From NCBI RefSeq assembly GCF_900105355.1, contig NZ_FNSC01000001.1, positions 4,340,001-4,404,000 on the forward strand: a stretch of DNA of 64,000 nt, given 5' to 3'. The notes under the pieces are model-generated. The model did not search any database. It saw only the letters and a program-made list of their open reading frames with translations, and was not told the origin of the DNA. Origin of the DNA: Pseudomonas anguilliseptica. Lineage in GTDB: Bacteria > Pseudomonadota > Gammaproteobacteria > Pseudomonadales > Pseudomonadaceae. Position 1 is the stretch's first letter; each line of letters opens with the position of its first letter. A program made the position numbers and the translations under genes. Of the stretch, positions 48,983-52,437 are shown one piece after another.

Positions 48983-49225
48983 ATGAGCGCAAAAGTCTGG
49001 CTGGTAGGCGCAGGCCCCGGCGACCCGGAGCTGCTGACCCTCAAGGCGGTCAAGGCTCTGAACCAGGCCGAGATCGTAATGATCGATGATCTGGTCAATC
49101 CTGCGGTACTGGAGCACTGCCCCAACGCGCAGATCGTGCCGGTAGGCAAGCGCGGCGGTTGTCGCTCCACTCCACAGGCGTTCATCCATCGCCTGATGCT
49201 GCGTTATACCGTAAGCGCTCCATAG
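48983..49225 (+). pseudogene. cobA: Uroporphyrinogen-III C-methyltransferase, 5' fragment truncated by IS66
   Basis: The start MSAKVWLVGAGPGDPELLTL has GAGGAG upstream. Typical N-terminal motifs VGAGPGDPELLTLKAV, MIDDLVNPAV and PVGKRGGCRSTPQAFIHRL follow. The native frame ends after about 75 codons, at 49210, where the IS66 end GTAAGCGC begins; a few element-encoded codons lead to a stop at 49225. The full enzyme (about 245-280 residues) makes precorrin-2 for siroheme, the cofactor of assimilatory nitrite reductase. The rest of the gene is not found after the insertion elements, so the fragment cannot be functional. Confidence 0.88.
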
Positions 49226-49256
49226 ACCCCACCTCCCTCTGGAGAGGTTTTGCGTT

Positions 49257-50813
49257 TTACAGTGGCGTCGTTGGTTGGCAGTTCCAAGGCAGCAGCGCTT
49301 CGTAGGCTTCAACGCTGTTGGCCAGCGGCAGGCGTTCGAGGACATGGCGCAGCCAGGCGTAGGGCTCCTGGCCATTGGTCTTGGCGGTTTCCACCAGGCT
49401 GTAGAGTTGGGCGCTGGCGGTCGCGCCTTTCGGCGTGTCGCTGAACAGCCAGTTCTTGCGACCTATGACGAAGGGCCGGATCGCGCGCTCGGCAGCGTTG
49501 TTATCGATCGGCAGGTGGCCAGCCTCGATGTAGCGTTCGAGTCGGCTCCAGTTGCTCGCCAGGTAGTTCACTGCTTTGCCCAGGGCATTCTGCGCCGTGA
49601 CCTGCGGCTGGGTTTTCTCCAGCCAGGTCTTGAGCTGATCGAGGAGCGGTAGGCTGTGCTGCTGGCGGCCCCGGTAGCGCTGTTCATCGCTGGCATCCTT
49701 AAGTTCGCGCTCGATGCCGTAGAGCTTGTTGATCATCCCCAACGCGATGTCGGCACGCCCGGTTTTGCCCTTCGGTTGCACCTTTTGCGCTTCGACGAAC
49801 TTGCGCCGCGCATGCGCCCAGCAGGCCAGGCGCTCAACACCTTGTTGTGCGGCCACGGCGTTGTAGCCGGCGTAATCGTCGGTCATCAGGTAGCCGCGAT
49901 AACCGTCGAGCAGGCGCAGCGGCACCTCCTGCGCGCGGCTGGTTGTGTAGTCGAAGAGGATCACCGGTTTGCCAGGCGGGCCACCGGTCTGCACCCACAT
50001 CCAGGAGTGGCTGCTCGGATCGCGCCCAGGCTCCTTGAGCACCTGCACGCGGGTTTCATCGCAGTGGATCACCGGACTGTCCAGCAGCCTGTCGCGCATC
50101 AGGTTGAGCAACGGTTGTAGCAGTTCGCCGCACTGGATCACCCAGCGCGCCAGGGTCTGCCGGGGGATGTCGATGCCATGGCGACTGAGCATCTTTTCGA
50201 AGCGATACAGTGGGATGCCGTCGGCGTATTTGCTGGTCAGCAGCATCGCCAGCACGCTCGGGCTGGCCAGCCTTTTCTCGATCAGTTGGGCCGGTTTGTC
50301 AGCGGTGACCGGCGCGCTTTCGCAGGCCTTGCAGGCATAGGTCTTGCGAACGTGGCGGATCACCTGAACCTGCATCGGGATGATTTCCAGCTGCTCGCTG
50401 GTTTCTTCGCCGATGGCCTGCTTGCGGCAACCGCATTCGCAGGTCAGTTCGTGTTCGGGCAGTTCGTGGATGACCTCGACACGCGGTAGTTCGGCCGGTA
50501 ACGGCTTGCGCTTGCCGCGGCACTTGGTCGGCGCAACGACTTCTTCCTCGACCTCAGCGGCCGGAGCTTCAGCCGCCGCTTCGGCCAGGCTTTCCGCTTC
50601 GTTGAACATCTCTAGCTGCGGTGAATCCGGGTCGCTGCTCTGCTCGGATTTACGGCCGAACAGGCGCTGGATCAACAGCGCGTTTTGTTCGCGCAGGCGC
50701 TCGATCTGCCCATCCTTGTCCTTGGCCAATTCCTGCGCCGACGACAACACCTCAGCGAGCAATTGCTTGAGCGCGGCGGGGTCATCAGGAAGGGTTTCGG
50801 GCACAGAAATCAT
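49257..50813 (-). CDS. tnpC: IS66-family transposase TnpC
   Basis: This 518-residue DDE transposase starts MISVPETLPDDPAALKQLLA. It has an N-terminal leucine-zipper-like coiled coil, a zinc-finger-like region CECGCRKQAIGEETSEQLE and the IS66 core (HRDIRHVRKTYACKACE-type zinc ribbon, here VIRHVRKTYACKACE). Catalytic acidic residues lie around IHCDETRVQVLKE, LMTDDYAGYNAV and NNAAERAIRPFVIGRKNWLF. It looks intact. Without tnpA the element is probably not autonomous. Confidence 0.93.
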   Translation of the reverse strand: MISVPETLPDDPAALKQLLAEVLSSAQELAKDKDGQIERLREQNALLIQRLFGRKSEQSSDPDSPQLEMFNEAESLAEAAAEAPAAEVEEEVVAPTKCRGKRKPLPAELPRVEVIHELPEHELTCECGCRKQAIGEETSEQLEIIPMQVQVIRHVRKTYACKACESAPVTADKPAQLIEKRLASPSVLAMLLTSKYADGIPLYRFEKMLSRHGIDIPRQTLARWVIQCGELLQPLLNLMRDRLLDSPVIHCDETRVQVLKEPGRDPSSHSWMWVQTGGPPGKPVILFDYTTSRAQEVPLRLLDGYRGYLMTDDYAGYNAVAAQQGVERLACWAHARRKFVEAQKVQPKGKTGRADIALGMINKLYGIERELKDASDEQRYRGRQQHSLPLLDQLKTWLEKTQPQVTAQNALGKAVNYLASNWSRLERYIEAGHLPIDNNAAERAIRPFVIGRKNWLFSDTPKGATASAQLYSLVETAKTNGQEPYAWLRHVLERLPLANSVEAYEALLPWNCQPTTPL

Positions 50814-50831
50814 GCCGTGGATTATACCGGC

Positions 50832-51191
50832 TCAGGTGACGAACCTAGGGGTCAAAACCTGGTGCGGCCGGTTGCGCCACAGGTCGATACCGTCCAACAA
50901 CCAGTTCAACTCCTGGGCCGTCAGCACGATCGCATCTTCGCCAGGTTCCGGATGCGACTTGAAGCGTTCAGCCTCCAATCGCTTGAGCCACAGGCAAAAG
51001 CCGTTGCGCTCCCAATACAAAATCTTCACCCGGCTGCGCGCGCGGTTGAGGAAGACGAACAGCACCGGGTCGAACACCGCCACCTTGATATCCAGCTCGA
51101 CCAGGGCGGCCAGGCCATCGATGGATTTTCGGAAATCCACCGGCTTGGGGTATAGATAGACTTTTTCGACTTTGGCGTCGGGGCGCATCAT
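50832..51191 (-). CDS. tnpB: IS66 accessory protein TnpB
   Basis: This 119-residue protein starts MMRPDAKVEKVYLYPKPVDF with GGAG nine bases upstream. It has the IS66 Orf2 signature PVDFRKSIDGLAALVE and VFVFLNRARSRVKILYWERNGFCLWLKRLE. It is needed with TnpC for IS66 transposition in characterised elements. It lies 18 bases upstream of tnpC. Confidence 0.92.
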   Translation of the reverse strand: MMRPDAKVEKVYLYPKPVDFRKSIDGLAALVELDIKVAVFDPVLFVFLNRARSRVKILYWERNGFCLWLKRLEAERFKSHPEPGEDAIVLTAQELNWLLDGIDLWRNRPHQVLTPRFVT

Positions 51192-51247
51192 GACGGCTGG
51201 CTCCAGAAAGAAATTGGAGCTCAGCATTGGCTGGGCGGCGGCAAAAA

Positions 51248-52332
51248 CTGAGTGCAACACCTGATCTTTCCGATACGGTGCTGCCCCTATGTCTTATTCC
51301 GAACTCAGCGTTGAAGAGCGCGCCACTATTCAAATCGGTCATGCCCAAGGCTTTAGCCTGCGCAAGATTGCCCACCTGATCAACCGATCCCCCTCGACTA
51401 TCAGTCGCGAGTTGCGCCGTAATCGAGAGGTCTGCGGTCGTTACTCGGCCCGTGCGGCGCAGCAGCAGATGAGAGCCCGGCGCCAAGTCTGCCGGCCCAA
51501 GCGAAAGCTGCTGCCCGGTAGTGAACGCTTCGAGTTGGTGACCCATATGCTGCGTGAGCGTTTGTCTCCCGAGCAGATTGCCGGCAAGCTGCGCAGCATG
51601 AACATACCCAGCCTCAGAGATGCCTACGTCTGTCGCGAGACGATCTATACCGCGATCTATGCCTTGCCGGTCGGCGAGCTGCGTAAGGAGCTGATTATCT
51701 GCCTGCGCCAAAGCAAGACGACGCGCAGGCCGCGCTCTGGCGGCGTGGATCGACGTGGCCAGCTCCCGGAGCTGGTCAGTATTCACGTGCGCCCGCCGGA
51801 GATTGAAGACCGCCTGATGCCGGGCCACTGGGAGGGCGACCTTATCAAGGGCAAGGCCAACGCCTCGTCGGTCGGCACCTTGGTAGAACGCACCAGTGGC
51901 TACCTGATGCTGATCAAGATGAACGATGCGACGGCGACCTCGGCGATGGAAGGTTTCAGCGCCGCACTCAATCGTATGCCGCTGGCGATGCGTAAGAGCA
52001 TGACCTACGACCAGGGCCGGGAGATGGCGCGGCACGCCGAGATCACCCAGAGAACCGGCATAGCGATCTACTTCTGCGACCCACACAGCCCCTGGCAGCG
52101 CGGCAGCAACGAAAACATCAACGGCCTCATTCGCCAGTACCTGCCCAAGGGCACAGACTTGTCGGGACACAGCCAAGAACAGTTGGATGCCATTGCACTG
52201 CAACTGAATATGCGGCCGCGTAAGCGCTTCGACTTCAAGTGCCCGATCGAAGTCATGAGCGAAGTAATGCAAGAAGCCATGGCTATGCGGCATGATGCGC
52301 CAGCGTCAATTCAATAACCGTGTTGCACTCAG
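51248..52332 (+). mobile_element. IS30-family insertion sequence
   Basis: A 13-bp perfect terminal inverted repeat, CTGAGTGCAACAC at 51248-51260 and its complement at 52320-52332, bounds one transposase gene. The element is about 1085 bp. Its left side abuts the truncated IS66; its right side abuts the region downstream of sigX. I see no convincing target duplication, as expected if a deletion joined the flanks. Confidence 0.88.
51289..52317 (+). CDS. IS30-family transposase
   Basis: This 342-residue protein starts MSYSELSVEERATIQIGHAQ. The N-terminal helix-turn-helix reads LRKIAHLINRSPSTISRELR. The DDE catalytic core is intact: Asp in PGHWEGDLIKG, Asp in MTYDQGREMA and Glu in RGSNENINGLIRQYLPKG. 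It fills the element with only 28 and 2 bases to the two terminal repeats. Confidence 0.94.
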   Translation: MSYSELSVEERATIQIGHAQGFSLRKIAHLINRSPSTISRELRRNREVCGRYSARAAQQQMRARRQVCRPKRKLLPGSERFELVTHMLRERLSPEQIAGKLRSMNIPSLRDAYVCRETIYTAIYALPVGELRKELIICLRQSKTTRRPRSGGVDRRGQLPELVSIHVRPPEIEDRLMPGHWEGDLIKGKANASSVGTLVERTSGYLMLIKMNDATATSAMEGFSAALNRMPLAMRKSMTYDQGREMARHAEITQRTGIAIYFCDPHSPWQRGSNENINGLIRQYLPKGTDLSGHSQEQLDAIALQLNMRPRKRFDFKCPIEVMSEVMQEAMAMRHDAPASIQ

Positions 52333-52437
52333 CTCCTGCAACCGCCTTCCCTATCTTGGTGGTCAGTAAGTTGTCTGACAAACACAAGACAACTCAGCCA
52401 GCAATTCTAACAGAATTAACCGATAGCTAAGATGGCT
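52333..52437 (-). promoter_or_regulatory. Residual sigX downstream region, probable orphan oprF upstream sequence
   Basis: These 105 bases follow the sigX stop codon on the minus strand. They contain an 8-bp dyad AGTTGTCT/AGACAACT (52369-52394) and a small palindrome AATTCTGTTAGAATT. In related genomes the sigX-oprF gap with the oprF promoters occupies this place. Here the gap runs straight into the IS30 end with no oprF coding sequence. Confidence 0.5.

What the first reader, a model, noticed from the sequence alone, without database searches (positions are those of the whole stretch)
49211..52437. oprF is missing from the sigX-cobA interval
As I recall, Pseudomonas genomes carry oprF directly downstream of sigX and convergent with cobA. 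Here sigX is followed by 105 bases, then an IS30, a truncated IS66 and a cut cobA. OprF is the major structural porin linking outer membrane and peptidoglycan, so its loss should strongly alter envelope, permeability and quorum-related traits.
Basis: partly seen in the sequence, partly recalled or inferred. Interest (0 to 1): 0.85.

Follow-up and report, generated by a model that had tools for sequence, protein, structure and literature searches.

The report
Major porin gene deleted by transposons
In this bacterium, a close relative of Pseudomonas peli, two nested jumping genes sit where the gene for the main outer-membrane anchor protein (OprF) should be, and no other copy was found in its near-complete genome, although almost every relative examined has one.

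Summary
Window 49211-52346 is an IS66 element (last 41 bp missing) with a complete IS30 nested in it. The IS30 right end abuts the oprF leader, 91 bp from the sigX stop. Against P. peli DSM 17833, 1,616 bp are gone: the last two thirds of cobA, all of oprF and 8 bp before its start. The OprF model finds nothing in the 5.23-Mb, 3-contig, 99.98%-complete assembly. P. peli OprF and the missing DNA match only peptidoglycan-binding domains, the flanks and 82 bp of cysG (E below 0.001). In the genus sample 396 of 398 genomes have OprF; the other miss is 77% complete. An intact IS66::IS30 nest elsewhere, identical over 3136 bp, shows what was lost here, which fits an IS30 adjacent deletion. The genome has 53 IS66 left ends and at least 14 full IS30 copies. 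CysG carries the lost cobA domain. Two tandem lipoproteins carry OprF-like peptidoglycan-binding domains, so tethering may persist; no barrel replacement was found. The mechanism is ordinary; a species-representative Pseudomonas without oprF is not. Reads and phenotype are untested.

The parts
48799..48935 (+). P11 RNA (Rfam RF00625) directly upstream of cobA
   Evidence: cmscan 127.8 bits, gathering 70
48983..49210 (+). cobA remnant: first 76 codons, then cut by IS66; no decay seen (13 of 17 differences from P. peli at third codon positions)
   Evidence: PF00590 match; comparison
49211..51233 (-). IS66-family element, 2023 of 2064 bp; left end intact, last 41 bp missing; tnpC and tnpB on minus strand
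   Evidence: compared with full-length copies; NF033517, NF033819
49257..50813 (-). IS66 transposase tnpC (518 aa)
   Evidence: PF03050 1e-109
50832..51191 (-). IS66 accessory gene tnpB (119 aa)
   Evidence: NF033819 107.7 bits, cut-off 50
51234..52346 (+). complete IS30-family element, 1113 bp, both inverted repeats, nested in IS66
   Evidence: 14 full-length copies listed in the genome; ends and 3-bp duplications
51289..52317 (+). IS30 transposase (342 aa)
   Evidence: NF033563 330.6 bits, cut-off 80
52346..52347 (.). deletion junction: IS30 right end against the oprF leader; 1,616 bp present in P. peli are absent here
   Evidence: alignment to L051, gene positions
52347..52437 (-). retained sigX-oprF intergenic sequence (91 bp; 99 bp in P. 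peli), now reading into the antisense strand of IS30
52438..53037 (-). sigX, intact; 49 base differences from P. peli, 45 at third positions
   Evidence: NF007222
53126..53941 (-). mechanosensitive channel gene (the name cmpX is recalled), intact
   Evidence: PF05552, PF00924

Best explanation
oprF was removed from the chromosome in two steps. Step 1 (inferred): an IS66 carrying an IS30 close to its right end inserted in cobA. Step 2 (inferred from the junction): an IS30-mediated adjacent deletion ran from the IS30 right inverted repeat across the end of the IS66, the rest of cobA and all of oprF, stopping 8 bp before the oprF start codon. Recombination with a second IS30 in the oprF leader would leave the same product. 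Shown: both IS boundaries, the missing segment, absence of oprF from the assembly, the intact nest elsewhere, and intact sigX. Inferred: the cell makes no OprF. Survival is probably eased by CysG for cobA, and by Pal and two OprF-like peptidoglycan-binding lipoproteins for the tether; no substitute for the OprF barrel was found.
For: PF05736: 0 matches in own genome; 118 of 118 same-genus relatives have it; 396 of 398 in a genus sample that overlaps and includes own, 384 of 385 of those at least 90% complete and at most 5% contaminated. The P. peli OprF barrel (residues 1-185) has no match; the P. peli segment is absent. The flanks stop exactly at the IS ends. L132 holds the same nest complete, with the 3-bp CTG duplication and the last 41 bp of IS66, and is identical over 3136 bp. 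11 of 14 full IS30 copies have 3-bp duplications; the window copy is one of the 3 that do not. The 8-bp left flank of the window's IS66 equals none of the 49 right-end flanks read, so an inversion or translocation is not supported (two right ends on C2 differ by one base, one of them with its own duplication). IS30 makes deletions, and those judged not transpositional ended away from the repeats (PMC9333248, passages). CysG: 671.8 bits, cut-off 400.
Against: No reads could be seen. The 3.1-kb nest occurs twice in the assembly, so a collapse between direct IS copies that dropped 1.6 kb is possible, if unlikely in a 3-contig assembly. One genome per species is held, so the loss may be strain-level. 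IS30 deletion and IS30-IS30 recombination cannot be told apart. P. aeruginosa has the PA1041 anchor too, yet the paper on it finds it remarkable that losing a single OmpA-family gene gives extensive changes (PMC7947798, passages), which speaks against full redundancy.
Confidence: 0.87

Rival explanations
1. Assembly artefact: the real chromosome has oprF between two IS copies and the assembler joined across them.
For: The nest is repeated at C1:3513959-3517094, identical over 3136 bp, and the genome is full of near-identical IS66 copies.
Against: The assembly is 3 contigs, 99.98% complete; the missing 1.6 kb was found on no contig, and C3 holds neither IS and other frames; the junction has a specific form (IS30 end exact, IS66 tail absent) that the other nest does not have.
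Confidence: 0.07
2. Same loss, other route: homologous recombination between an IS30 in the cobA-borne nest and a separate IS30 in the oprF leader deleted the segment.
For: 14 full-length near-identical IS30 copies; several IS66 copies show swapped flanks, so recombination between IS copies has occurred here.
Against: Needs an extra insertion in the leader in the same direction; the sequence cannot separate it from adjacent deletion.
Confidence: 0.3
3. OprF function is kept by an unrecognised divergent barrel-plus-anchor protein elsewhere.
For: 13 OmpA-domain places in the genome.
Against: None of the 12 tblastn matches reaches the OprF barrel. The best two are lipoproteins of 208 and 245 aa. 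Others looked at are Pal and a YiaD-type lipoprotein and, by eye only, a MotB-like frame. The remaining OmpA-domain proteins were not classified.
Confidence: 0.05

Closest known systems
P. aeruginosa CF isolate PA42, ISPa8 upstream of oprF (PMC3948848; passages read)
   Same: Natural loss of OprF caused by an insertion sequence just upstream of the start codon, in a living isolate
   Different: There the gene is in place with an IS 31 nt upstream of its start and expression 50-fold down; here the whole gene and most of cobA are deleted in a species representative
IS30 intramolecular deletion (PMC9333248; passages read)
   Same: Deletion products formed by IS30 inverted-repeat junctions
   Different: Studied with E. 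coli IS30; here inferred from one junction of another IS30-family element nested in IS66
PA1041 peptidoglycan-binding anchor, Pba (PMC7947798; passages read)
   Same: Lip2 passes the PA1041 family cut-off (301.9 against 250); lipoprotein with a peptidoglycan-binding domain that keeps the Asp and Arg named for diaminopimelate binding (read by eye)
   Different: Its role in a cell without OprF is untested; Lip1 does not pass the cut-off

Membership tests
IS30 family element | IS30-family DDE transposase | tested here: met
   NF033563 330.6 bits, cut-off 80
IS30 family element | terminal inverted repeats and short (2-3 bp, recalled) target duplication | tested here: met
   About 26-bp imperfect repeats (read); 3-bp duplications in 11 of 14 full copies; the window copy itself lacks one
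IS66 family element | IS66 transposase TnpC and accessory TnpB | tested here: met
   NF033517, NF033819
IS66 family element | 8-bp target duplication (recalled) | tested here: met
   19 of 53 left ends have a matching 8-bp right flank; 28 do not, some through mispairing of nested copies; 6 have no right end within 6 kb, the window copy among them
IS66 family element | tnpA (recalled as typical of one IS66 subgroup) | tested here: not met
   Only about 83 bp lie between the tnpB start and the right end of the 2064-bp element
OprF (PF05736 barrel) | N-terminal barrel domain present in the genome | tested here: not met
   0 matches; no tblastn match before residue 186
IS30 adjacent deletion | one deletion endpoint exactly at an IS30 inverted repeat | tested here: met
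   Junction 52346/52347 against the complete nest L132 and P. peli
IS30 adjacent deletion | transposase-made rather than recombinational | not testable with these tools
   Both routes give the same sequence
PA1041 anchor lipoprotein (Lip2) | family score above curated cut-off | tested here: met
   NF053612 301.9 against 250
PA1041 anchor lipoprotein (Lip1) | family score above curated cut-off | tested here: not met
   NF053612 202.3 against 250

The most novel reading that the evidence does not exclude
This lineage was pre-adapted to live without OprF: two outer-membrane lipoproteins already carried near-copies of the OprF peptidoglycan-binding domain, and an IS5-like insertion 136 bp upstream of them may have raised their expression, so the tether was split from the porin and the porin gene could be lost. 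It would be a natural experiment separating OprF's anchor role from its channel and signalling roles.
Probability: 0.2. Interest if true: 0.7.

Novelty: new variant of a known kind. Interest (0 to 1): 0.55.

Why it matters
OprF is in nearly every Pseudomonas genome sampled here (396 of 398) and, as recalled, is the main structural outer-membrane protein of the genus. A natural lineage without the gene, but with sigX kept, offers a way to ask which OprF functions are replaceable and what SigX does when its neighbour is gone. It also warns that IS-rich Pseudomonas genomes can lose core envelope genes.

Tried and rejected
Rejected: oprF moved elsewhere by inversion or translocation (no oprF found; the window's IS66 left flank equals none of 49 right-end flanks; one left-left match, to C1:3226817, is not what recombination between copies would give and may reflect target preference). 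Rejected: C3 as a leftover piece with oprF (3379 bp, no IS66 or IS30, other frames). Rejected: IS66 as generally truncated. Not supported: recent gene conversion from this clade's OprF into the lipoproteins. The domain tree (quick method; 109 rows after dropping identical fragments and those under 90 aa; 118 columns, which the tool calls few) splits 20 other-type rows from 89 OprF-like rows with SH-aLRT 100, but P. peli-clade Lip2 falls outside OprF+Lip1 and the direction of transfer is unresolved. No sigma-70-like promoter was found at the IS5-like junction upstream of Lip1 nor at that place in P. peli, so the expression idea has no support beyond position. Paper searches for natural oprF loss gave PMC3948848 as the one precedent I recognised; I saw listings only for the rest, and most subscription papers are not held. 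A search for P. peli and insertion sequences listed no paper holding the name P. peli among the 12 shown.

Full report
What is there. The window is C1:4340001-4404000 of an assembly of 5,229,617 bases in 3 contigs (C1 5,020,146; C2 206,092; C3 3,379), 99.98% complete. Its nearest named relative in the one genome-contig scan is P. peli DSM 17833 (97% identity of the adjacent kinase protein). From window 44272 to 60000 the aligned DNA pieces are 88-92% identical, so it is probably another species of that group; the tool warns that records very near the window may have been left out.

The junction. In P. peli (L051) the order is cobA 12104-12841 plus, oprF 12974-13939 minus, sigX 14039-14638 minus. 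The window follows P. peli to L051 12331 (window 49210) and resumes at 13948 (window 52347). Absent are 1,616 bp: 510 bp of cobA with its stop, the gap, the 966-bp oprF and 8 bp before its start. Between the flanks lie IS66 (49211-51233) and IS30 (51234-52346).

Anatomy of the insert. Full IS66 copies in this genome are 2064 bp, many with 8-bp duplications. At C1:3513959-3517094 (L132) the same IS30 sits at the same IS66 position, flanked by the 3-bp duplication CTG and followed by the last 41 bp of IS66. In the window those 44 bp are gone and the IS30 right end touches the oprF leader. The 3136 bp shared with L132 are identical. So the nest formed first, and the deletion starts at the IS30 end. 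14 full-length IS30 copies were listed (which scored 40 of 61 candidate places); 11 have a matching 3-bp duplication and 3, the window copy included, do not. The E. coli IS30 paper reports deletions from inverted-repeat junctions, and that deletions judged not transpositional ended away from the repeats (PMC9333248, passages). A second paper names recombination between copies and adjacent deletion as frequent causes of missing duplications (PMC11708052, abstract and outline).

Is oprF elsewhere? PF05736: 0 matches in own genome. The same search of 194 genomes (own included) found it in 157, among them 118 of 118 same-genus relatives; the remaining misses besides own lie in other families of the order. 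The genus sample, which overlaps the former, gave 396 of 398; the misses are own and G315 (77% complete, 400 contigs); among genomes at least 90% complete and at most 5% contaminated, 384 of 385. P. peli OprF gave 12 tblastn matches, all starting at residue 186 or later. The P. peli segment gave, below E 0.001, only the peptidoglycan-binding domains of two lipoproteins, the two flanks and 82 bp of cysG (40 of 74 candidate places scored).

Age. The cobA remnant has 17 differences from P. peli, 13 at third positions, so it has not visibly decayed. With 76 codons this is weak evidence for a recent loss. sigX shows 45 of 49 differences at third positions.

What may compensate. cobA: a full CysG is present. 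Tether: Pal (TIGR02802 133.7 against cut-off 125.35) and two tandem lipoproteins at C1:3566886-3567509 (Lip1) and C1:3567639-3568373 (Lip2), whose domains are 80-86% and 71-73% identical to P. peli OprF's, by the stretch aligned. Both have a lipobox-like signal and keep the Asp and Arg of the diaminopimelate site (read by eye; residues named in PMC7947798). The best solved relative of the Lip1 domain is P. aeruginosa OprF's, 5u1h (the species is recalled). Full-length Lip1 at 77% identity or more is listed in 59 of 398 genus genomes including own (which scored at most 7 candidates per genome); the 58 others all have OprF, so lipoproteins of this kind predate the loss. In 11 other same-genus genomes picked, the Lip1 domain is 43-48% identical to P. 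peli OprF's in 10 and below the cut-off in 1. The PA1041 paper, though, gives 68.2% identity between a part of that domain in P. aeruginosa Pba and OprF, so likeness to OprF is not confined to this clade. This is a plausible cushion, not a demonstrated one; nothing found replaces the barrel.

Setting. 53 IS66 left ends; 19 with matching 8-bp flanks, 28 without, 6 with no right end within 6 kb including the window's (nested copies are sometimes mispaired). Several left and right flanks pair across distant copies, once between C1 and C2, a sign of recombination between IS copies.

Verdict. A real, complete loss of oprF in this assembly, made by known IS processes. It is surprising for the genus, with one IS-caused precedent of a different form (PMC3948848, passages). 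Reads and phenotype remain to be checked.

Noticed in passing
G000 genome-wide; window copy 49211-51233: 53 left ends of one near-identical IS66 element on contigs C1 and C2; many lack matching duplications and several pair with distant copies: a recent burst with rearrangements.
   Followed up: partly
window 49211-51233: The 2064-bp IS66 element has tnpB and tnpC but no room for tnpA, although its many near-identical copies suggest recent movement.
   Followed up: no
L207 5887-6510 and 6640-7374 (C1:3566886-3568373): Tandem lipoproteins with OprF-like peptidoglycan-binding domains; in some relatives Lip1 has the OprF-like domain while Lip2 keeps the other type: a sign of domain exchange, direction unresolved.
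   Followed up: partly
L207 4559-5750: An insertion with a 4-bp CTAA duplication, absent from P. peli, ends 136 bp upstream of the lip1 start. IS5-like is my reading of its transposase frame; no family search was run on it.
   Followed up: partly
window 48799-48935: P11 RNA (RF00625) directly precedes cobA, and the stretch aligns upstream of cobA in P. peli (Rfam not run there). In P. alcaligenes L052 the matching stretch precedes a nirB-like and a nitrate-reductase-like frame with cobA behind them; in L066 and L068 it precedes the nirB-like frame. cobA looks like the leftover of that operon. Gene names are my reading.
   Followed up: partly
C1:3504774-3505061 (L005): An OmpA-domain frame has an in-frame TGA within the matched domain.
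   Followed up: no
C1:3601666-3602778 (L167) and C1:1405198-1406310 (L172): Two further IS30 copies without matching 3-bp flanks, so possible sites of other IS30-linked deletions or recombination.
   Followed up: no
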